Source: Sphingomonadales bacterium (lineage in GTDB: Bacteria > Pseudomonadota > Alphaproteobacteria > Sphingomonadales > Sphingomonadaceae). Taken from it: DNA of 40,549 bases. The position numbers were made by a program, and so were the translations under genes. Below are positions 27,401-39,922 of the stretch, in pieces. A model generated the notes under the pieces. It was not told the origin of the DNA. It saw only the letters and a list, made by a program, of their open reading frames with translations, and made no database searches. The DNA lies in contig JAAFIB010000010.1 in assembly GCA_013297725.1 (NCBI GenBank), positions 13,916 through 54,464 of the forward strand. Reading direction: 5' to 3'. Numbering within the stretch: position 1 is the stretch's first letter; each line of letters starts with the position of its first letter.

Positions 27401-29503
27401 TTTGCTGCCGATACCCCCTATCGCTATCGCCGTGAAGAAATTCAGGGCACTGGCCTGACCGGCCCTTATAATTTGACGGTACGCGACATCCTGCCAAACA
27501 GCGAGCGGATCACACTGGAAACGCGTGATCGTCTGCGTTCTGATCGCATCGTTGAACGCCGCGACCTGATCCGCCATATCGATTATGATATCGACTATCT
27601 TGCCGGAACATTGCGTTTCCGCGAGCCAGTGCTGTCGCGCTCTTCAAGCCTTGATCCGCAATTCATCATTGCCGAATATGAAGTCGATGGCATTGGCCAA
27701 CGAGTGCAAAATGGTGGTGGCCGTGTGAAATGGCAGTCGCAGGATGAAAAGCTGCAGATCGCTGCAACCGCAATCCACGACGAAACTGATACTGGCAAAA
27801 CCAATCTGGCTGGCGCTGATATCGTCTATCGTCCAGGAACAGGCACTGAACTGCGCGCTGAAATTGCGGCAACAGACGGCAAAGCACGCGGCAGCAGCGC
27901 TACTCCCGATGCAGGAACAGCAACGGCTGTGCTGCTTGAAGCAGAGCATCACGGCGCAAAGGTCGATGTGCTTGCGTATTACCGCCGCCAGTCCGCACAA
28001 TTTGGGCTGGGCCAGAACAACCGTTCAGAAACCGGCACAGAGAAATTTGGCCTCGATGCCCGCTATCGCCTGACTGAACAGGTCAGCGTATCGGCGCTCG
28101 GCTATCAAGAGGATTATCTCCAAACCGGTGCGCGTCGTCGTGCTGGTTCGGCGGAAATCGAATATCGTAACAACGAAACTTCCCTGCGTGCCGGCATCAT
28201 CCATGCCGACGACAGATTGGCGGATGGTTCCACTAATCGCTCCACGCTTGTGAAACTGGGTGGATCGCAGAAATTCTTTGACGGCAAGCTGGAACTTGAC
28301 GCGCAAAGCGAATTTGCGATTGGCGGCGAAGACGAAAGCATCGACTTCCCTGCACGCCACAAAATAGGTGCGCGCTATGCGGTGCGTTCCGACATACAGC
28401 TGATCGGCAGTTACGAAATTGCCAAGGGTGAGAATATCGATGCACGCACCGCAAGGTTAGGCTTTGACATCGCACCTTGGGCAGGCGGCCGGATCGTTGC
28501 CAGTGCCAATCAACAGGAAATAACCGAATATGGGCCGCGCACTTTTGCAGCCTATGGTTTGGCACAGTCGTTTAAGCTGGACGACAAATGGTCAGTCGAC
28601 TTCACCGTTGACGGCAACAAAACACTCGGCGGGTTTGCCCGTGCCGATGTCATCAATCCGCTGCAACCTGTCGCCTCTGGCGGGTTCCTAGGCAGCGATG
28701 GTACGTTGACGGAAGATTTCGTCGCGGTGACAGGTGGTGCAAGCTATCATGGCGAGCGTTGGAGCTGGACGGGTCGTGCCGAATGGCGCGATGGTGATAC
28801 GACGCAGCGTTATGGCGTTACAACTGCAATCCTGCGCCAAATCGGTGAAGGTCGTGCAGTTGGCGGAGCATTTAATTGGTTCCGCGCCAAACAAGAAACA
28901 GGCGCAAGCACAACAACGGCGCAGGCCGAAATCAGCTGGGCCCATCGCCCCGCCGATAGCCAGTGGTCGTTCCTGAATAAGACCGAATTCCGTCATGATG
29001 CGGTGCAAAATGCTGTAGCCGGTTTGCCCGGTCCGATTGGTGGCGCACCGTTGCTGGTTAATGGCAACGTCAAGTCAAACCGCGTGATCAATAGCCTTTC
29101 TGTGAACTATACGCCCATCGACAATGATGATGGGGCATTTATCGAACGCGGCGAATACGGCTTTTTCTGGGGCACACGCTACAACACAGATCGCTTTGGC
29201 CTTGATGATGTTAAAGGTTGGAGCAACGTCATTGGTGCAGATCTGAAATTCGACCTTTCTGACTTTGCAGATGTTGGAGTATCGGGCACCGCGCGCATTG
29301 GAACCTCTGGCAAGAACATTTCTTGGTCAGGCGGTCCAACGTTGACAGTCACACCGTTCGACAATGCAAACATAACTCTTGGTTACAACATGGTCGGTTT
29401 TGAAGATCGCGACTTTGAAGAAAGCCGCTACACACGCAGCGGTCCGTTCCTGACCTTTAAACTAAAATTTGACCAACAGAGCTTGGCAGGATTTAAGTTT
29501 TAA
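24404..29503 (+). CDS. Giant DUF11 / outer-membrane beta-barrel protein
   Basis: A 1699-residue predicted outer-membrane protein. Signal peptide 1-30 (ends PAFAQ). Then the operon's shared N-terminal module (STISNTAQVEWESGGQTLSRP), beta-rich modules to about 370, a DUF11 domain (about 370-500, LRKTTSSVTAMPGDIVQYRV) and a carboxypeptidase-regulatory/SdrD-like B domain (about 505-570, VTDEDGRYHFEGVVPGLHVV). An Ig-like part leads to a long region from about 860 of alternating aromatic/polar strands, ending in GFKF with terminal Phe, typical of barrels. There is no Shine-Dalgarno before ATG 24404, only the U-run of the terminator. Likely a low-copy anchor or exporter for the DUF11 proteins; unproven. 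Confidence 0.82.
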   Translation: MNLLTKSFIKCAGALAAAIPIAAASLPAFAQSASGSSTISNTAQVEWESGGQTLSRPSNTVDIVVDRTITPLPTSLQLFRYTGGPSGQPTTMPATMCMSSSGPKPVDLTGAFSQYAANPAPIESTTAIRAGEPLILRVTSASQNVSPTAIDTFEAVITTRNGDRERITMTETAVNSGIFMAVINTAATPASPVIGDCVLTVRPGDNLTFDLGNGAGGGAIASGAVNILVDPFGLTFDSGDGAPVSGTRVTIVDAATGVPAQVFGDDGVSTFPNSLITGSTVTDSSGASYSFDTGFYRFPFLRPGVYRLVITPPSPYTAPSIATPAEIALLTRPDGGPFIIAPGSYGGTITLSDPAPVRIDVPMDRPGGQLQLRKTTSSVTAMPGDIVQYRVEVRNPDRTRVSGPVTVTDILPSAMRLRFNSVRYNGALVTPTVAADGANFSVTVAPLAGGQSGLLTYLAEVRSDARPGNAINLASARDNRGAVSDNADSIVRIVRDGISERFTIIGRVTDGGCDVDPRKAKGIAGVRVMLQDGTYAVTDEDGRYHFEGVVPGLHVVQIDPSTFPLDQKPVDCARNTRSAGSAISRFVEGRGGSLKRADFRAVQTVAREDTRAKAVPLPPVLTDAQAAGSETDWFENQTPGVGFVFPVTDYNPRSRTTRVVIKHMPRQKIELLVNGKPVDVLNFDGTKKSTDGNMRAAVWRGILLDAGNNVLTAKVTGEDGAIVETLTQNIYVAGAPMTAQFLKDQSVLLADGVTRPRIAVRMTDRNGKPIQHDAVGDFSVTDPYRPAIEVDAQQANQLSGLERAQPVWRVHGDNGIAYIELEPTTASGTVAVSFNFQDGEVRRTQRIETWLDPGDRPWTVVGFAAGTVGFNTLDEGLEELVQDDDQLNLDGRVALYAKGRVSGKWLMTLAYDSDKNEDETRFAGIIDPRRYYTVYADRSEQRYDAASVRRLYLKLERPQFYALFGDYTTGIDEPELARYQRNFNGIKAEYRSEQVHAQVFAADTPYRYRREEIQGTGLTGPYNLTVRDILPNSERITLETRDRLRSDRIVERRDLIRHIDYDIDYLAGTLRFREPVLSRSSSLDPQFIIAEYEVDGIGQRVQNGGGRVKWQSQDEKLQIAATAIHDETDTGKTNLAGADIVYRPGTGTELRAEIAATDGKARGSSATPDAGTATAVLLEAEHHGAKVDVLAYYRRQSAQFGLGQNNRSETGTEKFGLDARYRLTEQVSVSALGYQEDYLQTGARRRAGSAEIEYRNNETSLRAGIIHADDRLADGSTNRSTLVKLGGSQKFFDGKLELDAQSEFAIGGEDESIDFPARHKIGARYAVRSDIQLIGSYEIAKGENIDARTARLGFDIAPWAGGRIVASANQQEITEYGPRTFAAYGLAQSFKLDDKWSVDFTVDGNKTLGGFARADVINPLQPVASGGFLGSDGTLTEDFVAVTGGASYHGERWSWTGRAEWRDGDTTQRYGVTTAILRQIGEGRAVGGAFNWFRAKQETGASTTTAQAEISWAHRPADSQWSFLNKTEFRHDAVQNAVAGLPGPIGGAPLLVNGNVKSNRVINSLSVNYTPIDNDDGAFIERGEYGFFWGTRYNTDRFGLDDVKGWSNVIGADLKFDLSDFADVGVSGTARIGTSGKNISWSGGPTLTVTPFDNANITLGYNMVGFEDRDFEESRYTRSGPFLTFKLKFDQQSLAGFKF

Positions 29504-30777
29504 TCGGCGAAAAGAAGGACCGGAGTTTCAACCAGCTTTTTCAATGCCTGAACAAAACTAGCAGCGTCCCATCCGTCGACAACACGGTGGTCGCAACTGA
29601 TCGACAGGTTCATCAACTTGCGCGCTTCGATCGTGTCGCCCACGAAAACCGGGCGTTCGACGATTTTGTTCGGGCCAATGATTGCAACTTCGGGCCGGTT
29701 GATGACCGGTGTTGTTGCTATGCCGCCAAGTGGGCCAAGCGAAGTGACGGTCAAAGTAGAACCAGAAAGCTCTTCGCTTTTCGCCGTTCCATCGCGCGCT
29801 GCATTGGCCAAACGCGTTATTTCGTGCGCCAATTGCCAGACATTCATGTCCTGCGCATCGCGTAAAACCGGAACCATTAGCCCCGCATCCGTTTGCGTTG
29901 CCATACCAAGATGGATTGCGCCGTGGCGTGTGACTACGCCCGCTTCGTCATCATAACGTGCATTTATCATCGGAAATGCCGGGATCGCTTTACAGATCGC
30001 AACAATCAAAAACGGCAACATCGTCAGCTTTGGCCGCGTGCCGCGATTGTCATTCAGGTCCGCACGCATCGCTTCCATTGCGGTAACGTCGAATTCCTCG
30101 ACATAGCTGAAATGCGGGATATTGCGCTTTGACGCAGCCATATTCTCGGCAATGCGGCGGCGCATGCCGATGACTTTGACCGCTTCATCGTCGCGTTTTG
30201 CGGAGGTTCCGGCGGCGCGATAGCCCTGCCCTGCGCCATAGCTGAGATAGGCATCAAGGTCTGCATGACGAACATGGCCGCCCGATGCTTTTACCAAGCT
30301 GAGTTCTACACCGAGCGATTTGGCGCGAGCACGGACAGCGGGGGATGCGGTGACTGAGCCGCGTACCGACAACACGGCTTTAGTATGGTCCGTTGGTGCT
30401 GAGCTTGTCGAAGCACCGCTGTCCTGCATCACCCGTCCTTCGACAGGCTCAGGACTAACGTTTGGGAGTGGCGGCGTAAACTCGGGTTCAGGTTTTGGTG
30501 CTTTATCAGCATTTGCAGGCAGCGCTTCTTCGCCACCTTCAACCTCAATCTCCACCAGCATTGAACCAATCGAAATCACATCGCCCGCCTCGCCGGCAAC
30601 CGCAGTAACAACGCCCGAAACAGGGCTTTCCATTTCGACCGTGGCCTTATCTGTCATCATGTCGGCAATCGGCTGATCTTCCTCAATCCGGTCGCCAATT
30701 TTGACATGCCAAGCAACGATTTCCGCCTCGGCAATGCCTTCACCGATATCGGGAAGTTTGAAGGTAAAAGTTCCCAT
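29500..30777 (-). CDS. Branched-chain 2-oxoacid dehydrogenase E2 (lipoamide acyltransferase)
   Basis: Transfers acyl groups from E1 to CoA in branched-chain amino acid breakdown. The 425 residues comprise a lipoyl domain with K44 in TDKATVEM, a linker, a peripheral-subunit-binding domain (about 142-178, ASPAVRARAKSLGVEL) and a catalytic domain ending with DHRVVDG (396-402). Start 30777 has GAAGGA. The linker (about residues 108-127, containing SPEPVEG) is encoded by an inserted REP pair that keeps the frame. The stop codon overlaps the convergent barrel gene's stop (TTAA). E3 is not in the window. Confidence 0.93.
   Translation of the reverse strand: MGTFTFKLPDIGEGIAEAEIVAWHVKIGDRIEEDQPIADMMTDKATVEMESPVSGVVTAVAGEAGDVISIGSMLVEIEVEGGEEALPANADKAPKPEPEFTPPLPNVSPEPVEGRVMQDSGASTSSAPTDHTKAVLSVRGSVTASPAVRARAKSLGVELSLVKASGGHVRHADLDAYLSYGAGQGYRAAGTSAKRDDEAVKVIGMRRRIAENMAASKRNIPHFSYVEEFDVTAMEAMRADLNDNRGTRPKLTMLPFLIVAICKAIPAFPMINARYDDEAGVVTRHGAIHLGMATQTDAGLMVPVLRDAQDMNVWQLAHEITRLANAARDGTAKSEELSGSTLTVTSLGPLGGIATTPVINRPEVAIIGPNKIVERPVFVGDTIEARKLMNLSISCDHRVVDGWDAASFVQALKKLVETPVLLFAD
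30395..30455. repeat. REP pair inside the E2 coding sequence
   Basis: Two inverted units, GAGCTTGTCGAAGCA (30401-30415) and TCCTTCGACAGGCTCAGGA (30436-30454), separated by about 20 bases. This is a palindrome family different from the one in the nuo operon. It lies in the flexible linker between the lipoyl and E1/E3-binding domains and translates as Pro/Glu- and Ser-rich residues without breaking the frame. Confidence 0.85.
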
Positions 30778-30781
30778 GACG

Positions 30782-31816
30782 TCAGTCCTTCATAATTTTT
30801 TCAAGCGCCCGTGCAATCCGCACTGGCCCGGGGAAATAGGCCCATTCAAGGCTATGTGGATAAGGTGTATCAAATCCGGTGACGCGTTCGACCGGAGCCT
30901 CCAGATGATAGAAGCAACGTTCCTGCACCAATGCCGCCAGCTCGGCCCCAAAGCCGCTAGTCCGTGTTGCCTCATGCACCACCATGCACCGTCCGGTTTT
31001 CTTTACCGAGGTATCTATCGCCTCAATATCCAGTGGCAAAAGTGTCCGTAAATCAATGATTTCTGCGTCAATTCCGACTTCATCAACTACCGATTTAACC
31101 ACGTGAACCATGGTTCCATAAACAAGGATTGTCAGCGCCTGCCCCTCACGGACTGTTGCAGCTTTACCCAGTTCAATACGATAATAATCGGTGGGAACAT
31201 CGCTGCCATCATGCTTTGCCCATGGTTCAACCGGGCGATCATAATAGCCGGTGAACGGACCATTATAGATGCGCTTTGGTTCAAAGAAGATGACCGGATC
31301 ATTATCCTCAATCGCCGCAATCAATAGCCCTTTTGCATCATAAGGGTTTGATGAGATAACAGTCTTTATCCCGCAGATATGCGTGAACAGGCTTTCTGGC
31401 GATTGGCTATGCGTTTGCCCGCCAAATATCCCGCCACCAAAGGGCGACCGCACCGTCATCGGGCAAATATAGTCATTGGCTGACCGGTAACGCATTCGCG
31501 CCGCTTCGCTTACAAGCTGATCTAGCCCCGGATAGATATAATCAGCAAACTGGATTTCTGGAACGGGTCGCAGACCATAGGCCGCCATGCCAACGCCCGC
31601 GCCGATAATCCCGCATTCGCTGATCGGTGTATCGAATACCCGGGTGTTGCCATGCTTGGCCTGCAATCCCGCAGTCGCCCGGAATACGCCGCCAAAATAG
31701 CCGATGTCTTCGCCCATCAGGACAACATCAGGGTCGCGTGTAAGCATAACGTCAAGCGCGCTGTTGATCGCCTCGATCATGTTCATGCGCTTAGGAGTAT
31801 CGGTGATTTCAACCAT
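30782..31816 (-). CDS. Branched-chain 2-oxoacid dehydrogenase E1 beta
   Basis: The beta half of the ThDP-dependent decarboxylase. The 344 residues have the family segments MGEDIGYFGGVFRATAGL, DTPISECGIIGAGVGMA, QFADYIYPGLDQLVSEAA and FGAELAALVQE. The start at 31816 overlaps the E1alpha stop by one base (TGATG), with GGGAG upstream; a start at 31831 is unlikely. E2 follows after 4 bp. Equal-stoichiometry subunits encoded by coupled genes fit the heterotetramer. Confidence 0.94.
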   Translation of the reverse strand: MVEITDTPKRMNMIEAINSALDVMLTRDPDVVLMGEDIGYFGGVFRATAGLQAKHGNTRVFDTPISECGIIGAGVGMAAYGLRPVPEIQFADYIYPGLDQLVSEAARMRYRSANDYICPMTVRSPFGGGIFGGQTHSQSPESLFTHICGIKTVISSNPYDAKGLLIAAIEDNDPVIFFEPKRIYNGPFTGYYDRPVEPWAKHDGSDVPTDYYRIELGKAATVREGQALTILVYGTMVHVVKSVVDEVGIDAEIIDLRTLLPLDIEAIDTSVKKTGRCMVVHEATRTSGFGAELAALVQERCFYHLEAPVERVTGFDTPYPHSLEWAYFPGPVRIARALEKIMKD

Positions 31817-33099
31817 CAGCTCGGCTCCCATTCGGTACCGAACTTGGCTTCCTGTTCTTCATGAAGTTCAGCGGCTTGCTCTTTTAGATGCCATGGCATT
31901 TCTTCAAAAACATCTTCAAACATCGTATCGAAAGGATGATGCAACCCGTGGCCCAATATACCGTTTGCCTCAGCTTCCTTTTGCATCTTCTTAACGCTGT
32001 CGGTTAGCTCGGCGGCTTGATCAGCATGCTGCTCCTCAGTCCATTCACCAAGCAAGATCAGATGCGCCTTTAACCGGTTCACTGGATCACCCAGCGGCCA
32101 CTTGTCGTATTCTTTGGCTGCACGATATGCTTCTGGATCATCCGAGGTTGAATGCCCCTCGGCTCGGTACGTGAAATATTCGATAAACGTCGGCCCATTG
32201 TTAGTGCGGGCGCGATCCGCCGCCCATCGCATAGCCGCGTACACCGCCAACGGATCGTTGCCATCCACACGCAGAGAGGCGATGCCATAGCCAACACCGC
32301 GCGCAGCAAAAGTCGTGCGTTCACCGCCTGCGATCCCCGAGAACGAAGAAATCGCCCATTGGTTGTTGACGACCTGCATAATGACTGGCGCGTTATACAC
32401 CGCAGCAAAGGTCATCGCCGCGTGGAAATCGCCCTCAGCTGTTGATCCCTCGCCGCACCAAACTGCAGAAATCCGTGTGTCTCCGCGCGATGCACTTGCC
32501 ATCGCCCAGCCCACAGCTTGCGGATATTGCGTCGCCAGATTGCCCGATACGCTGAAAAAACTATGGCTGGGTGCCGAATACATAATCGGCAGCTGGCGCC
32601 CCTTTAGATGGTCCGACCGGTTCGAATAGATTTGGTTCATCATCTGCACCAACGGGTATCCACGCGTGATCAAGATGCCCTGTTGGCGATAGCTTGGGAA
32701 CGTCATGTCATCGCTGGCCAGCGCCATAGTGGTCGCAACAGACGTTGCCTCTTCGCCCGTCGATTTCATGTAGAAACTGGTTTTGCCCTGACGCTGCGCG
32801 CGGAACATGCGATCATCAAAGGCCCGTACCATCATCATATTGCGCAACATCAGTCGCAACTGATCCGCATTTAGGCCGGGGTTCCAACTGCCCTTTGCCT
32901 GTCCATCATCGTCCAACACGCGGACTAAACCATAGGCAAGATCTTGTATGCTGGCAGGCGTAGAGGCTTCGTCGGGCTTTGCGATCAGATCGACCGGTGG
33001 CACCACAATGTCACTGAAATCCGCTTCGTCACCGGGGCGGAATTTAGGTTCGGGTATGTGTAGCCGCAGCGGCCCCAAATTGGACTTTTTATCTGTCAT
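31816..33099 (-). CDS. Branched-chain 2-oxoacid dehydrogenase E1 alpha
   Basis: The ThDP-binding subunit. In 427 residues, the context KGRQLPIMY, FSVSGNLATQ, VGWAMASA and SLRVDGND matches bacterial branched-chain E1alpha, not pyruvate E1alpha. The ThDP/Mg motif runs from GEG (216-218) to NN (245-246). The usual first motif is GDG, so Asp is replaced by Glu here, a conservative change. The phosphorylation-loop-like YRAEGHSTSDDPEAYR is present. Start 33099 has AGAGGA. First gene of a three-gene operon. Confidence 0.93.
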   Translation of the reverse strand: MTDKKSNLGPLRLHIPEPKFRPGDEADFSDIVVPPVDLIAKPDEASTPASIQDLAYGLVRVLDDDGQAKGSWNPGLNADQLRLMLRNMMMVRAFDDRMFRAQRQGKTSFYMKSTGEEATSVATTMALASDDMTFPSYRQQGILITRGYPLVQMMNQIYSNRSDHLKGRQLPIMYSAPSHSFFSVSGNLATQYPQAVGWAMASASRGDTRISAVWCGEGSTAEGDFHAAMTFAAVYNAPVIMQVVNNQWAISSFSGIAGGERTTFAARGVGYGIASLRVDGNDPLAVYAAMRWAADRARTNNGPTFIEYFTYRAEGHSTSDDPEAYRAAKEYDKWPLGDPVNRLKAHLILLGEWTEEQHADQAAELTDSVKKMQKEAEANGILGHGLHHPFDTMFEDVFEEMPWHLKEQAAELHEEQEAKFGTEWEPS

Positions 33100-34330: not shown

Positions 34331-36469
34331 ATGCATGCGCGCATTGTCATAGTGGACGATCGTGCCACCAACTTGCGGATTTACGCGCAGTTCGTGGCGA
34401 TGATGGGGCCAGAGTTCAGCTCCAAATGCTTTCAAAGCTCTGTGGAGGCGCTTGCTTGGTTAGAAACTGAGACAGCCGACCTACTAATTGTCGATTTTCG
34501 CATGCCCGAAATGAATGGCGCAGAATTCATTCGTCGCGTGCGCGAACGTGGCGCAGGTGGCGGCGCTCCTGCGATCGTGATCACAGCACGGCAAGATCGA
34601 GAATGCAGGATTACGGCGCTCGACGCAGGCGCGACAGACTTTCTACAAAGCCCCGTAACGGACACCGAATTCCGCGAACGCGCGTTATTGCTGATTAACC
34701 AGCACCGCAAAAGCCGGGAATTGGAAGAAGGGGCATTCGGTCAAAATGCATCCGATCCCAATCATCAAGGCGGCGCTCAAGCACCAAAATCGATGCTTGA
34801 ACAAATCATCGACACAACACCGATCATGATCAACGCCACAGACAGGAATGGAAAATTCCTGTTCATGAACAATTATCAGTCAGCCTTATTCAAAAAAGAC
34901 CCTGACTCGCTTGTTGGTACATCAGTTTATGATTCTTTGCCGTCGGCACTCGCCGAACGAGAGCGGCGACGTAACACTGTTATCATCGAAACCGGCAACT
35001 CAATCCCGAATTATGAAGAAGTCTATATAAGCGATGGCGTCTCACTGACATTTCATTGCAACAAAGCGCCTTTGCAGAATATGGATGGTCAAGTCATCGG
35101 CGTTTTGACGTCTGCCGTTGATATTACTGCACGCAAATTTGCCGAAGAGCATCGCGCGCATTTGGCGCTTCACGATATCCTGACAGGATTGCCAAACCGG
35201 GCTCTATTGTCTGAAAATGTCCGTACGACGATTGAAGAATGCCAAAAAAATGGCGAAACCGCCGCATTACTGTTGGTAGATCTGGACAGATTTAAAGTCA
35301 TCAACGACACGCGCGGACATCAGGCTGGCGATATCCTTTTACGGTCTGTCGCTGAACGGATCAGCACGCATCTAAACCCGTCCTCTTTTGCTTCGCGAAT
35401 TGGCGGGGACGAGTTTGCCATCATACTACGCGACATTACGGGCGTAGAAGACGCTGCAGCTCAAAGCGCTCAATTACTCGCGCAGATCAGTCAGCCTTAC
35501 CGCTTTGACGATTCCGAACAATTGATCGGTGCAAGCATCGGCATCGCGATGATCCCAGGTGATGGCGTGTCCGCTGACGAATTGCTACGTCTTGCTGATC
35601 TTTCAATGTACGAAGCGAAAGCCAATGGACGTAACAGGTTTTGCTTTTTCTCGTCAGAATTGAACCGCATTGCACAGCAGAATGCAGAGGTAGAGGCTGA
35701 CCTGCGCGATGCCTTAGAAACTGAACAATTTGTTCTGGAATATCAGCCAATTATTGATGCTGTGACGAGTGAATATTGCGGGCTTGAAGCGCTGCTGCGG
35801 TGGAATCACCCTGTTCGCGGGCGCCTTATGCCGAACGAATTCATCAAAGTTGCCAACGATACTGGCCTAATCAACCGTATCGGCCTGTGGGTCATCGACA
35901 CGGTTTGCAAACAGATTGCTCAATGTCGCAACGATGGCATTGCCCTACCCCATGTTGCGGTCAATGTCTCGCCAAGGCAATTTCAATCCTCCAGTCTGTG
36001 CGATGAAATCTTGGGCTTCACCGCTGCTCATGGCATCGGGCCAGGGCAATTAACGGTGGAAATTACCGAAGAACTGCTGATCGATCAAAGTGCAGAATTA
36101 CTTGCACAGCTCGAAAGGCTTCGGTCAAATGGCATCGATATCTCGATAGACGATTTCGGTACTGGCTATTCTTCGCTCCAATATCTCCGCGATCTACCCG
36201 CCAAACGACTGAAAATCGATCAGACATTTATCTCAAGAATTGAACAGTCCACTGCGGATCGTGCAATCATCTCAACAATTGCACATCTGGCACACGCGCT
36301 GGGAATGCGCGTTGTTGCAGAGGGCGTAGAGACCGAGGGACAACGCGCCCTGTTGCACGCTGCGGGCTGTGATGAATTGCAAGGCTATCTGTTTGGCAGA
36401 TCCCTACGCATCGACCAAATATACACACTGTTTGGCGATGGTCCCATCAGTTTTCAAAGGGCAGGATGA
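34331..36469 (+). CDS. REC-PAS-GGDEF-EAL response regulator (RpfG-position regulator)
   Basis: A 712-residue cytoplasmic cyclic-di-GMP enzyme. REC domain 4-120 with phospho-acceptor D55 in LLIVDFRMPEMNG; PAS about 155-270; GGDEF about 275-440 with intact RIGGDEF (GGDEF at 358-362); EAL about 455-700 with EAL at 486-488. The catalytic set NVSPRQF, EITEELL, DDFGTGYSSL, LKIDQTF, AEGVETEG and LQGYLFG is all present, so both synthase and phosphodiesterase sites look intact. No RxxD inhibitory site precedes GGDEF. I start at ATG 34331, next to the REC domain; the frame is open to a TTG at 34241. The stop overlaps the kinase start as ATGATG. The kinase is the obvious phosphodonor. Confidence 0.92.
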   Translation: MHARIVIVDDRATNLRIYAQFVAMMGPEFSSKCFQSSVEALAWLETETADLLIVDFRMPEMNGAEFIRRVRERGAGGGAPAIVITARQDRECRITALDAGATDFLQSPVTDTEFRERALLLINQHRKSRELEEGAFGQNASDPNHQGGAQAPKSMLEQIIDTTPIMINATDRNGKFLFMNNYQSALFKKDPDSLVGTSVYDSLPSALAERERRRNTVIIETGNSIPNYEEVYISDGVSLTFHCNKAPLQNMDGQVIGVLTSAVDITARKFAEEHRAHLALHDILTGLPNRALLSENVRTTIEECQKNGETAALLLVDLDRFKVINDTRGHQAGDILLRSVAERISTHLNPSSFASRIGGDEFAIILRDITGVEDAAAQSAQLLAQISQPYRFDDSEQLIGASIGIAMIPGDGVSADELLRLADLSMYEAKANGRNRFCFFSSELNRIAQQNAEVEADLRDALETEQFVLEYQPIIDAVTSEYCGLEALLRWNHPVRGRLMPNEFIKVANDTGLINRIGLWVIDTVCKQIAQCRNDGIALPHVAVNVSPRQFQSSSLCDEILGFTAAHGIGPGQLTVEITEELLIDQSAELLAQLERLRSNGIDISIDDFGTGYSSLQYLRDLPAKRLKIDQTFISRIEQSTADRAIISTIAHLAHALGMRVVAEGVETEGQRALLHAAGCDELQGYLFGRSLRIDQIYTLFGDGPISFQRAG

Positions 36470-38997
36470 TGAAGATCAACGCCTTTAGAAAAACTGACTC
36501 GACTGCAGAAGCAGCGGCACCTGTCCATGAACTTGAGATGGCCAAGAACCGTATCTTTCTAGGTCTTGCCGCGTGGACAGGCAGTTATATGCTCAGCGCA
36601 GATAAGTTCATTTTTTCGGCCTTTGCCCTTTTTCTTAGCGTTCATTTCGCCTTGTATTTGGCTGTACGTGCCAAAAGCATTCCGCGAGAAACCTATTTTC
36701 TCATCGGGATTATTGTCGATAACGTTATGGCATCGACGATCTTGCTGTATTCGCCTGAGGCGACATCTTTCGTTTATCCGCTATTTTTATGGGCCGCGTT
36801 GGGCACAGGCTTTCGTCTAGGACTGAAATGGCTAGCCATTGCCTCGATCTTCTCAACTGTAGCATTCGGTGTGCCTGTATTGATGACCGAATACTGGCAA
36901 CAAAATGCTGCATTGGGATATAGCCTGACATTGGCCTTGCTTGTTATTCCGGCATATTGTTCAAAGCTGATCAGAAAATTGTCCCAAGCTAAGGATCAAG
37001 CTGAAACTGCAAACAGAGCCAAAAGCTACTTTCTTGCAAGCGTTAGCCATGAACTGCGAACACCGCTGAATGCAATCATTGGTTACGGCAACCATCTGAA
37101 ACAGATTGAAATGCCAAAGAACCAGCACGACATGATTGATGCAAGTGTAAAGGCAGGCGAGCATCTTTTGCATTTGATTGACCAGTTGATCCAGATTGCC
37201 CGTGATGACAGCGGCCCTGTGAACATTCCGCAAAAGCCGATGAAGGCAACTGAAATACTAGCTGAAATTCGCGACATCATGCAGGTCAGAGCGGTAGAAA
37301 AATCGCTTGCGATCCACCTGCACGCAGAACCTTTCAGTGATACGATTGTCAATGCACCAATAGACGTTGTTCGCAATACGCTTCTCAATCTAGTTGGCAA
37401 TGCTATCAAATTCACCGAGTCTGGTGGTGTTACAATATCAAGTAAGCTGAGGGATGCAGGCAACCAAACAACTTTATGCCTGACCATTTCAGACACAGGC
37501 ATAGGCATTGCCGAAAATGCACTGAAGCGGATTTTTGAGCCGTTTCAACAGGCCGATGAAACAGTTTTGAATCGCTTCGGTGGAACCGGGTTGGGGCTTG
37601 CCATTTGTCGTCAGTCGCTTAGCCAAATTGGCGGCACCATTAGTGTTGAGAGCGAATTGGGGCGTGGCACACAATTTTTTGTAACGATCCCGGTTGAGAG
37701 GATTGAGCAAAGCCCTACAAAAACGGCAGTCGACGTCTCTTTAGAACCTACAGTCAAATTGTTGGCTCTTGGTCAATTTGATGGCAGCCTTTTGGCCAAG
37801 GCGCAGGCCGCGGGTAATTACCACGTTCGCAGCATCGCTTGTGTAACATATGAAGAGTTATCGGCAGCGCTGGAACAAATAACGCTAACTGATTTTAGCA
37901 TCGCCATAATTGATAAACATTTGGCAGATCAGATTACAACGGACGATACGTTGTGGCAGAAATTCTCGACAGCCGAAGTTGCGCCAGTACTTGTCGCCAA
38001 TACCGACGAAATTGATTTGGAAGATGTAGAGCTACGCGCTGCATTCGCAACAGTGCTTCCAGCGACGCCGCAATTTGACGAAGTGCGCAGCGCCATTCGG
38101 ATCGGTTGCTCCTTTGCTGGCAGCAATAAAATTACCGCTTTAGTGCAGAATGAAAAACCAAAGGTTTCGACGCCGCGTAAAGTGCTTGTGGCCGATGATA
38201 ATCGAACGAACCGTAATATTCTGGCGGCAATACTCGAAGCTGCAGGGCATGAGGCGATACTTGTATGCGACGGCGACGAAACTCTAGAAGCTCTGGAGAA
38301 GGATGATTACGACATTCTTCTTCTTGATGTGAACATGCCCAAGCTTGATGGGATCACAGCTTGCAAAATGTGGCGTCAGATAGAGGGTGGTCGTCAGCAT
38401 CTTCCTATTGTTGGCGTTACCGCCGATGCGACAATCGAAACTGAAGAGCGTTGCCTTAATGCTGGTATGGATTTGCGATTGACCAAACCCGTCAATGCCA
38501 AGCTGCTGCTGGCGACGATCGATAGCTGTTGCGAGCATAAAGGCGAAACGGTCCAAATTCCGTCTCCCACAGATGATCCGCTTGGAACTGTGGTGCAGTT
38601 AATGGGATCGGCCAGTGCTACGTCACATGCGTCCATTGATCCGGCTCAAATCGATTATCTCTTAACCATCGGCGATCAAAGTTTCGTCGACGAGATGATT
38701 GATAGCTTTTTCACCGATGCGGATGAATCTTTAGAGACATTGCAGAAATCTGTGACCGAGCGAGATCTTAATCAGTTTCGTTTTGCAGCCCATGCAATGA
38801 AAAGTTGCGCCAACAACATTGGCGCTGTGATCTTGGCCGCATTGTGCGGAAAACTGGAAAAAATAACCGAAGCTGAGTTTAACGATAAAGCACCGCAGCA
38901 TGCCGCAAATGTGTTGAAAGCGTTTGAGAATGTAAAGGTGGACCTAGAACCTTTTGCATCGGGTGCTGTTACACAACCCGTTGCAAGCTCCGGTTGA
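36466..38997 (+). CDS. RpfC-like hybrid sensor histidine kinase with Hpt
   Basis: An 843-residue inner-membrane phosphorelay kinase. N-terminal five-helix sensor (about 28-168) with the RpfC-like pattern of Ser-x-x-Tyr-Pro, LW, GxGxRxG, YW and a final helix LLVIPAYCSKL. HisKA with H195 in SVSHELRTPLNAI; HATPase with NLVGNAIKFTESGG and DTGIGI and GGTGLGL; a degenerate receiver-like stretch about 430-550; a true REC with D621 (ILLLDVNMPKLDG); and a C-terminal Hpt with H776 (AAHAMKSCANNIGA). From memory, Xanthomonas RpfC has H198-D512-H657 in the same order without the degenerate receiver. Start 36466 (or 36469) is coupled to the upstream regulator. Confidence 0.9.
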   Translation: MMKINAFRKTDSTAEAAAPVHELEMAKNRIFLGLAAWTGSYMLSADKFIFSAFALFLSVHFALYLAVRAKSIPRETYFLIGIIVDNVMASTILLYSPEATSFVYPLFLWAALGTGFRLGLKWLAIASIFSTVAFGVPVLMTEYWQQNAALGYSLTLALLVIPAYCSKLIRKLSQAKDQAETANRAKSYFLASVSHELRTPLNAIIGYGNHLKQIEMPKNQHDMIDASVKAGEHLLHLIDQLIQIARDDSGPVNIPQKPMKATEILAEIRDIMQVRAVEKSLAIHLHAEPFSDTIVNAPIDVVRNTLLNLVGNAIKFTESGGVTISSKLRDAGNQTTLCLTISDTGIGIAENALKRIFEPFQQADETVLNRFGGTGLGLAICRQSLSQIGGTISVESELGRGTQFFVTIPVERIEQSPTKTAVDVSLEPTVKLLALGQFDGSLLAKAQAAGNYHVRSIACVTYEELSAALEQITLTDFSIAIIDKHLADQITTDDTLWQKFSTAEVAPVLVANTDEIDLEDVELRAAFATVLPATPQFDEVRSAIRIGCSFAGSNKITALVQNEKPKVSTPRKVLVADDNRTNRNILAAILEAAGHEAILVCDGDETLEALEKDDYDILLLDVNMPKLDGITACKMWRQIEGGRQHLPIVGVTADATIETEERCLNAGMDLRLTKPVNAKLLLATIDSCCEHKGETVQIPSPTDDPLGTVVQLMGSASATSHASIDPAQIDYLLTIGDQSFVDEMIDSFFTDADESLETLQKSVTERDLNQFRFAAHAMKSCANNIGAVILAALCGKLEKITEAEFNDKAPQHAANVLKAFENVKVDLEPFASGAVTQPVASSG

Positions 38998-39922
38998 TCC
39001 GCCGTTCTTGGGCGTTGGCTAGCCGCTCCATTTTGCGGACATCAGCCTCAGTTAACGTCATCGCCGTTTCCGCCCAGATGTTCGTTATCTTCAATAATTC
39101 ATCCAGCTCAACAGGGTCGGACGCACGCCGCGCCATATAGACTGCGCGTTCGGCGGCAAAACGCTGGCGGTGCTTGTTGCAATATTCAACGATAGCAGCC
39201 TCGCCTTCGCCATCCTCAACAAGAATATCGACGATGCCCATTTCGTACAGTTCCTCTGCTGTGTGAATTTTCCCGTCAAGAATGAATTTTTCAGCCAGCT
39301 TTCGTCCGACACGCCGGATCAGGAAGCTGTAGGCTCCCATGCCGGGGAAAAGGTTGAAAATAATTTCTGGCAAACCCAAGCGCGCACTTTTTTCGGCAAC
39401 CAAGACATCAAATGCTAGAGCGTGTTCAAAGCCGCCCCCCAAGGCATCGCCTTGAACAAGAGCGAATGTGATAATCGGTGCGCCAAATGCATTCCAGTTG
39501 GCGTGCTGCATCCGTACGCATGTCTCGGCATATTTGCGCATGGCGGGCAAATCGCGCTGGCGGATGCTTTCGGCAAAATGGCGAAGATCACCGCCGAGGT
39601 TGTAAACGCCGGGAGTTTTCGATCCACAAACAAAATAACGAAGATCATCAGGTCCGCCATTAGCGGCGAAGGCATAATTATCAGTGACCCAATCCTGCAC
39701 GTCCTGCACCTCAGCCCCAAGGCTGTAGGTGTAACTCGGACGACCTTTTTGGTTCATAAAGCACCAGAAAATCTGGTCTTGTTTGTCATGACGAACAACG
39801 ATTTCATTGTACTGACGACCAACGATAGGCACGCCAAGTTGATTGACGCTGCCGTACTGTCCACTTGGTCGGCGAGCATTGGTCGTGAATGTATCGTTTA
39901 ACACGCGGGTATGAGTAGCCAT
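38969..39922 (-). CDS. rpfF: RpfF-type DSF synthase (crotonase family)
   Basis: A 317-residue crotonase-fold enzyme that probably makes a DSF-type cis-2-unsaturated fatty acid from acyl-ACP. It has the RpfF signatures PGVYNLGGDL (104-113), GGGFEHALA with E166, LPEIIFNLFPGMGAY with E186 and ITEADVRKM-like C-terminus. The E166/E186 spacing of 20 equals E141/E161 of Xanthomonas RpfF, as I recall it. About 25 extra N-terminal residues. The start at 39922 has AGAGGA; a start at 39955 is possible. Convergent with the RpfC-like kinase, 29-bp overlap. The 249 bp upstream are very AT-rich without an obvious promoter. Confidence 0.88.
   Translation of the reverse strand: MATHTRVLNDTFTTNARRPSGQYGSVNQLGVPIVGRQYNEIVVRHDKQDQIFWCFMNQKGRPSYTYSLGAEVQDVQDWVTDNYAFAANGGPDDLRYFVCGSKTPGVYNLGGDLRHFAESIRQRDLPAMRKYAETCVRMQHANWNAFGAPIITFALVQGDALGGGFEHALAFDVLVAEKSARLGLPEIIFNLFPGMGAYSFLIRRVGRKLAEKFILDGKIHTAEELYEMGIVDILVEDGEGEAAIVEYCNKHRQRFAAERAVYMARRASDPVELDELLKITNIWAETAMTLTEADVRKMERLANAQERRINRSLQRVV

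What the first reader, a model, noticed from the sequence alone, without database searches (positions are those of the whole stretch)
34331..39922. DSF-type quorum-sensing locus with a GGDEF-EAL regulator in place of RpfG
The order is regulator, hybrid kinase, convergent crotonase, the same as Xanthomonas rpfG-(H)-rpfC / rpfF. The kinase sensor looks like RpfC and the crotonase like RpfF. The regulator has a receiver but carries PAS-GGDEF-EAL instead of HD-GYP. The output chemistry (cyclic-di-GMP breakdown) could be kept by an unrelated domain, with synthesis added. PAS-GGDEF-EAL also recalls Burkholderia RpfR, so this looks like a hybrid of the two known DSF architectures. I know of no characterised sphingomonad example.
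Basis: partly seen in the sequence, partly recalled or inferred. Interest (0 to 1): 0.9.

Follow-up and report, generated by a model that had tools for sequence, protein, structure and literature searches.

The report
DSF relay with swapped output domain
Sphingorhabdus-like bacteria carry what looks like a fatty-acid quorum-sensing circuit of the Xanthomonas type in which the last relay protein keeps its receiver but has exchanged its working end for an unrelated c-di-GMP module, so circuits of this kind appear able to swap outputs like plug-in parts.

Summary
Confirmed: window 34331-39922 encodes a REC-PAS-GGDEF-EAL regulator, an RpfC-type hybrid kinase (membrane sensor-HisKA-HATPase-REC-Hpt) and a convergent RpfF-type crotonase. 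I found this set in 22 distinct loci: 18 Sphingomonadales, 4 other alphaproteobacteria. The crotonase groups with RpfF by tree and predicted fold, apart from ordinary hydratases of its genome. The regulator's receiver is of the RpfG kind: one clade with RpfG receivers, and the best receiver hit in 28 of 28 genomes tested. Only the output differs. Three outputs sit on this receiver: HD-GYP, PAS-GGDEF-EAL (here) and, in many alphaproteobacterial loci, PAS-histidine kinase. These alphaproteobacterial receivers have Ser/Thr at the REC lysine position (40 of 40). A hybrid with Burkholderia-type RpfR is not supported: no FI domain, PAS closer to the kinase-type regulators, 1 of 4 RpfR ligand residues matched. 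In two relatives the synthase and the sensor/kinase half are decayed together while REC-Hpt and the regulator remain, which suggests that synthase and sensor work as a unit. I infer a DSF-type relay ending in c-di-GMP turnover; no signal, phosphotransfer or enzyme activity has been shown. New variant of a known kind.

The parts
34331..36469 (+). Response regulator REC-PAS-GGDEF-EAL (712 aa): RpfG-type receiver with a c-di-GMP output
34343..34681 (+). Receiver domain; phosphoacceptor Asp55 codon 34493-34495; Ser107 codon 34649-34651 at the position of the usual REC lysine
34811..35137 (+). PAS domain (PAS_4), closer to PAS of REC-PAS-kinase regulators than to RpfR PAS
35165..35638 (+). GGDEF domain with intact GGDEF motif, no RxxD I-site
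35696..36400 (+). EAL domain, all catalytic residues checked are intact
36466..38997 (+). RpfC-type hybrid histidine kinase (843 aa)
36523..36999 (+). Membrane sensor of the RpfC type (E22; LWxxLGxGFRxG motif; helical bundle in the model)
37018..37698 (+). HisKA (His195) and HATPase_c kinase core
38182..38877 (+). REC (Asp621) and Hpt (His776) relay half, kept without kinase core in two decayed relatives
38969..39922 (-). RpfF-type crotonase (317 aa); codons of the catalytic Glu pair at 39425-39427 and 39365-39367

Best explanation
A DSF-type quorum-sensing relay of the RpfF-RpfC-RpfG plan whose last component kept the RpfG-type receiver but carries PAS-GGDEF-EAL instead of HD-GYP. Proposed working: the crotonase dehydrates a 3-hydroxyacyl-ACP and releases a free cis-2-unsaturated fatty acid; this signal (own or a neighbour's) acts on the kinase's membrane sensor; phosphate passes His195 > Asp621 > His776 > Asp55 of the regulator; the receiver then changes c-di-GMP turnover, most likely through the EAL phosphodiesterase, with GGDEF as a regulatory or opposing domain. 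Shown here (by sequence): gene set, order, conservation, homology, catalytic and relay residues, joint decay of synthase and sensor/kinase in two relatives. Inferred: the signal's chemistry, the direction of phosphate flow, that EAL dominates, and the output phenotype.
For: Same order and domains in 22 distinct loci. Crotonase within an 81-row RpfF-family clade, 100/100 apart from 7 ordinary crotonase rows of the same genome, two of them identical (the program warns of long outgroup branches and unsettled bootstraps). The 12 best fold matches are all RpfF, DfsA or RpF-1 chains, E <= 2.4e-21; the next is 1.1e-14. The Glu pair and the two Gly cited for RpfF are kept (residues from a PMC9040811 passage). 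Sensor motif shared with HD-GYP loci; Glu22 in 15 of 15 sensors and in 41 of 41 rows with a letter there among 73 (the other 32 rows are gaps, partly from trimming). The best PDB match whose best stretch is the kinase's receiver is RpfC REC, 3m6m_D. Regulator receivers of HD-GYP, GGDEF-EAL and kinase types form one clade, 96/99, and the rpf-locus regulator is the best receiver hit of the genome in 28 of 28 genomes chosen for having such a locus, 7 of them HD-GYP genomes. EAL catalytic residues 22 of 22, GGDEF motif intact in 21 of 22. In G131 and G083 the crotonase is a remnant and the kinase has lost most of the membrane bundle and the core, with REC-Hpt and the regulator intact.
Against: No product, binding, phosphotransfer or c-di-GMP data. 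The NCBIfam model for RpfF (NF053515) is matched at 218 bits, well under its cut-off of 550; only the broader PRK08788 model passes. RpfF-like crotonases without a linked signalling gene are common in the order (54 of 85 loci read), so the enzyme family alone does not prove signalling. Of the xanthomonad RpfC sensor residues cited in PMC5391125, Glu19 has its equivalent, but Asp17, Ser18 and Gln22 align with V20, H21 and M25; Arg15 was not checked. Ser107 replaces the REC lysine, so receiver activation may be unusual. Two relatives keep the regulator without synthase or kinase core at the locus, so it can serve other inputs; these two cases may be one event.
Confidence: 0.72

Rival explanations
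1. The crotonase is a lipid-metabolism enzyme that makes no secreted signal; the kinase senses a membrane or fatty-acid state altered by the enzyme, and the regulator turns that into a c-di-GMP change. A private homeostatic loop, not quorum sensing.
For: Family members sit without linked signalling genes in 54 of 85 order loci, one of them checked by Pfam and found beside asparagine synthase; NCBIfam RpfF cut-off not reached; nothing here shows a diffusible product.
Against: RpfF fold and catalytic residues; linkage with an RpfC-type sensor in 22 distinct loci and joint decay with it.
Confidence: 0.17
2. The regulator acts like RpfR: its PAS binds the fatty acid in the cytoplasm and controls GGDEF-EAL directly, with the kinase as a secondary input.
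For: Same PAS-GGDEF-EAL order as RpfR; the PAS_4 domain of the Xanthomonas kinase RpfS binds DSF (PMC4504480 passages) and this PAS is PAS_4.
Against: PAS hardly related to RpfR PAS (E 0.003), 1 of 4 ligand residues with the same letter, no FI domain. The RpfR control L130 matches the solved FI and PAS chains; the window protein matches neither at the same threshold of 1e-20.
Confidence: 0.07
3. The regulator is mainly a diguanylate cyclase or has a non-enzymatic role; the EAL is kept for structure.
For: GGDEF motif intact in 21 of 22 and no conserved I-site.
Against: All EAL catalytic residues examined are kept in 22 of 22 and, apart from one Gln-to-Arg and gaps in incomplete proteins, in 120 listed relatives.
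Confidence: 0.1

Closest known systems
RpfF-RpfC-RpfG system of xanthomonads
   Same: Gene order, convergent rpfF, RpfC-type sensor and relay domains, RpfG-type receiver
   Different: Regulator output is PAS-GGDEF-EAL, not HD-GYP; Ser at the receiver's lysine position (Lys or Arg in the 8 HD-GYP receivers); the own genome gave no HD_5 match
RpfF-RpfR system of Burkholderia, Cronobacter and kin
   Same: PAS-GGDEF-EAL order; RpfF-type crotonase
   Different: REC instead of FI; PAS not of the RpfR type; a membrane kinase is present; the regulator is not next to the crotonase
RpfC-linked REC-PAS-histidine-kinase regulators in Alphaproteobacteria (class D here; I know no published name)
   Same: RpfC-type kinase, RpfF-type crotonase, RpfG-type receiver with Ser/Thr at the lysine position, related PAS
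   Different: Output is a second histidine kinase core
PA1396 of Pseudomonas aeruginosa
   Same: RpfC-like five-helix DSF input domain reported (PMC6536496 passages)
   Different: Whether it has a linked RpfF or an RpfG-type receiver was not checked here

Membership tests
RpfF (DSF synthase) | Falls with RpfF and apart from ordinary crotonases | tested here: met
   Tree (100/100, against 7 rows of the own genome only); Foldseek; phmmer PDB
RpfF (DSF synthase) | Gly86, Gly138, Glu141, Glu161 (Xcc numbering) | tested here: met
   G122, G174, E177, E197 in 328-residue numbering, invariant in 16 of 16; equivalence by spacing in the stretch without gaps; residues named in a PMC9040811 passage
RpfF (DSF synthase) | NCBIfam NF053515 equivalog cut-off (550 bits) | tested here: not met
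   218 bits; the PRK08788 cut-off of 177 is met with 353 bits. Hence called RpfF-type, not a proven DSF synthase
RpfF (DSF synthase) | Makes a cis-2-unsaturated fatty acid | not testable with these tools
   Needs mass spectrometry
RpfC | Membrane input domain, HisKA, HATPase, REC, Hpt | tested here: met
   part of the close relatives are named RpfC by JGI
RpfC | Glu19 before the first helix, said to be kept in all RpfC-type input domains | tested here: met
   E22: 15 of 15; 41 of 41 rows with a letter, 32 of 73 rows gapped; aligned with the L142 Glu; statement from a PMC6536496 passage
RpfC | Further xanthomonad DSF-sensing residues Asp17, Ser18, Gln22 | tested here: not met
   V20, H21, M25 in the window; residues from a PMC5391125 passage, which calls them conserved within Xanthomonadaceae
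RpfG | RpfG-type receiver | tested here: met
RpfG | HD-GYP output | tested here: not met
   no HD_5 match in the own genome. Not filed as RpfG
RpfR | N-terminal FI domain | tested here: not met
   REC in its place; no 6dga match at 1e-20 while the control L130 has one
RpfR | PAS with Ser168, Asn171, Arg186, Asn201 | tested here: not met
   E, R, E, N in the window; residues named in a PMC6361424 passage

The most novel reading that the evidence does not exclude
DSF circuits are modular at the effector: one ancient RpfC-to-receiver relay has carried three different outputs (HD-GYP, PAS-histidine kinase, PAS-GGDEF-EAL). In Alphaproteobacteria the receiver lost the usual REC lysine and the output became a kinase, and c-di-GMP control was then regained in the window's lineage with an unrelated domain, once or more. 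The receiver would thus couple phosphorylation to output in a non-canonical way.
Probability: 0.45. Interest if true: 0.8.

Novelty: new variant of a known kind. Interest (0 to 1): 0.62.

Why it matters
If true, DSF signalling reaches environmental sphingomonads and other alphaproteobacteria, and its final step is an exchangeable cassette. That allows a clean test of how one receiver drives unrelated outputs, of what a REC domain does without its lysine, and of how a quorum-sensing circuit decays (two relatives have lost synthase and sensor at the locus but kept the output).

Tried and rejected
RpfR origin of the regulator: a first GGDEF-EAL tree with little background put it near RpfR; with 29 background proteins it did not, and kinship is not rejected (AU p 0.456). 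Single versus repeated origin of the GGDEF-EAL type: not decided. AU p for one clade is 0.413 (GGDEF-EAL), 0.468 (receiver) and 0.513 (concatenated); in the last, the tree with all 18 together scored 0.85 log units higher than the free one, which speaks against repeated origin. A first crotonase tree had badly chosen outgroup frames and was dropped; the very long row L136 was left out, and crotonases of the GGDEF-EAL-linked, unlinked and regulator-less classes entered it as a subset (random, L130 forced in). The sensor model had no significant PDB match (best E 0.37). Promoter and terminator scan: no excess over shuffles. Branched-chain dehydrogenase genes beside the locus as a DSF precursor supply: they are also there in the two decayed loci, so no link is claimed.

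Literature: 10 searches of an open-access library only. Eight bear on sphingomonad or alphaproteobacterial DSF or on this architecture (8, 9, 25, 26, 30, 74, 75, 91); judging by titles and abstract starts no listed paper describes it, but one search listed only 15 of 86 papers. [quoted passage not shown] I saw passages by term search of PMC4504480, PMC8895600, PMC6361424, PMC5391125, PMC6536496, PMC9040811, PMC8357829, PMC3633832 and PMC4698668; none was read whole and no supplement was seen.

Full report
Observation. The three genes are where the finding puts them. The regulator is REC-PAS-GGDEF-EAL; the kinase has HisKA, HATPase_c, REC and Hpt behind a sensor without a Pfam match; the crotonase is ECH_1. 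The best NCBIfam model of the crotonase is PRK08788 (353 bits, cut-off 177); the RpfF model NF053515 is second at 218 bits, under its cut-off of 550. The best solved relatives are 7zq7, 3m6m (RpfF), 6dgn and 5fus, 195.8 to 156.7 bits, against 68.3 for the next crotonase. In the own genome the next crotonase match scores 44 bits.

Survey. Genome contigs gave 19 loci with a relative of the crotonase; 12 of 19 have the window's full set, 11 of them from Sphingomonadales records and one from Plastoroseomonas hellenica (in L011 the kinase lies in two frames). By whole-genome search (E <= 1e-25) the crotonase family is found in 86 of 396 genomes of the order, 24 of 385 of the class sample and 63 of 398 of the phylum sample; the samples overlap and include the own genome. 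I read 85 of 86 order loci (G284 was not fetched), all 23 new class places and 53 of 59 new phylum places. Classes (with L116 moved by hand to the window type because its kinase ORF had been started too far upstream): order 9 window type, 4 REC-PAS-kinase (in two of these no RpfC-type kinase was found beside the crotonase), 18 GGDEF-EAL convergent without RpfC, 54 without a linked signalling gene; class 1 window type, 14 REC-PAS-kinase, 8 other; phylum 2 window type, 9 REC-HD-GYP, 22 RpfC-type kinase without an adjacent receiver regulator (some at contig ends), 12 GGDEF-EAL adjacent, 8 other. Window-type loci, without the duplicates L029 and L030, number 22. Domain calls in this survey come from profiles built here from the window's proteins and from HD-GYP seeds, not from Pfam; ten proteins were checked with Pfam.

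Crotonase. In a careful tree of 88 rows the RpfF family (81 rows) is one side of a 100/100 branch from 7 ordinary crotonase rows of the own genome, two of them identical; the program warns of long outgroup branches and unsettled bootstraps. The window's enzyme sits with 17 other window-type rows, all Sphingomonadales (100/93). The sampled GGDEF-EAL-linked and unlinked crotonases of the order form another group of 18 with one row from outside the order (100/100). The four window-type rows from outside the order are not in the window's group. The residues named for RpfF activity in a passage of PMC9040811 are kept. The model (mean pLDDT 80.8) has RpfF, DfsA or RpF-1 chains as its 12 best hits.

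Kinase. The sensor motif LWxxLGxGFRxG, a Trp before the last helix and the Pro-x-Tyr end are shared with HD-GYP loci, with few exceptions. The residue aligned with RpfC Glu19 is Glu in 15 of 15 sensors and in 41 of 41 rows with a letter among 73; Asp17, Ser18 and Gln22 are not kept in the window. His195 is kept in all 73 rows; Asp621 and His776 in all but gapped rows. The model is a helical bundle (mean pLDDT 86.5) whose number of membrane passes I do not claim. The best PDB match whose best stretch is the kinase's receiver is RpfC REC of 3m6m. Part of the 64 listed sensor relatives are named RpfC by JGI.

Regulator. Receivers of HD-GYP (8), window-type (22) and REC-PAS-kinase (18) regulators form one clade, 96/99, apart from 20 other receivers of the own genome and 8 hybrid-kinase receivers (126 columns, many forks unresolved). 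With the window receiver as query, the best receiver of the genome was the rpf-locus regulator in 28 of 28 genomes, chosen because they hold such a locus: 7 HD-GYP, 18 REC-PAS-kinase, 3 window type. The position of the usual receiver lysine is Ser or Thr in 22 of 22 window-type and 18 of 18 REC-PAS-kinase receivers, Lys or Arg in 8 of 8 HD-GYP ones, Lys in 28 of 28 others, and Ser or Thr in the 120 relatives listed of 573. EAL catalytic residues are kept in 22 of 22; the GGDEF motif is intact in 21 of 22; the I-site is not kept. The PAS is nearer to that of REC-PAS-kinase regulators than to RpfR PAS. That the lysine normally couples phosphorylation to output is recalled knowledge.

History. 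A concatenated tree of receiver, kinase and crotonase (42 loci, quick search) puts the HD-GYP loci on one side and the 34 alphaproteobacterial ones on the other (SH-aLRT 100). Within the latter, 17 of 18 window-type rows form one group (98) lying among REC-PAS-kinase rows, with L108 outside it. A single origin is not rejected, and the tree with all 18 together scored slightly higher. So an exchange of output under a kept receiver is well supported; its number and direction are not.

Natural loss. Two same-genus genomes have the regulator but no crotonase match. Their loci, beside the same thyA and branched-chain dehydrogenase genes, hold an intact regulator (65 and 66% identical), a kinase reduced to an N-terminal stub joined to REC-Hpt (351 and 314 aa, relay Asp and His kept), and a crotonase remnant in place (E 6e-8 in L250; only 0.009 in L251). 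Two further genomes of the genus in the sample have neither crotonase nor regulator match. Synthase and sensor/kinase are lost together, as expected if one makes what the other senses; the two cases may be one event. Whether another RpfC-type kinase exists elsewhere in these two genomes was not tested.

Own genome: 10 EAL, 12 GGDEF and 5 PilZ matches, no HD_5 match (the assembly has 148 contigs).

Mechanism and limits. See Best explanation. The chain from fatty acid to c-di-GMP is inferred from homology; the direction of the output, the signal's structure and the phenotype are open.

Noticed in passing
L250 5784-8995 and L251 5928-9037: Decayed versions of the locus in two same-genus genomes: regulator intact, kinase reduced to a stub plus REC-Hpt, crotonase a remnant.
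   Followed up: yes
14 of the loci L089-L105; L036, L041, L042, L045: RpfF-type loci whose regulator is REC-PAS(-PAS)-HisKA-HATPase: an RpfG-type receiver on a second histidine kinase (16 of these 18 with the RpfC-type kinase seen beside it).
   Followed up: partly
L036 7820-9886, L041 1994-3880, L042 7119-9011, L045 6989-9016: RpfF-type crotonase fused to a C-terminal domain, PF14518 (Haem_oxygenas_2, iron-containing redox enzyme) by Pfam in L036; the C-termini of the other three are 64-67% identical to it. It could modify the signal.
   Followed up: partly
L087 5832-9981: RpfF-like crotonase next to an asparagine synthase and convergent with an AFG1-like ATPase (Pfam, this locus only); five other unlinked loci looked at have an ORF of 631-687 aa in the same place.
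   Followed up: partly
L037-L040, L043, L044, L046-L052, L054-L057, L066: RpfF-like crotonase convergent with a GGDEF-EAL protein in 18 Sphingomonadales loci; in the tree the GGDEF-EAL parts of the 7 sampled do not group with the enterobacterial and Burkholderia-type RpfR rows. FI domain not tested.
   Followed up: partly
L113-L115, L118, L119, L121, L137-L141 and others of family f193: RpfC-type kinase beside RpfF with no receiver regulator adjacent; two checked neighbours (L137) are iron-sulfur and aminotransferase genes.
   Followed up: partly
L252 4443-6377: A second REC-PAS-kinase regulator (receiver 87 bits to the window's) in genome G589, away from the rpf locus.
   Followed up: no
window 29500-33099: Genes that look like branched-chain 2-oxoacid dehydrogenase E1a, E1b and E2 (named from memory, no family search) beside thyA and the locus; same flank in several relatives, also where the crotonase is gone.
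   Followed up: partly
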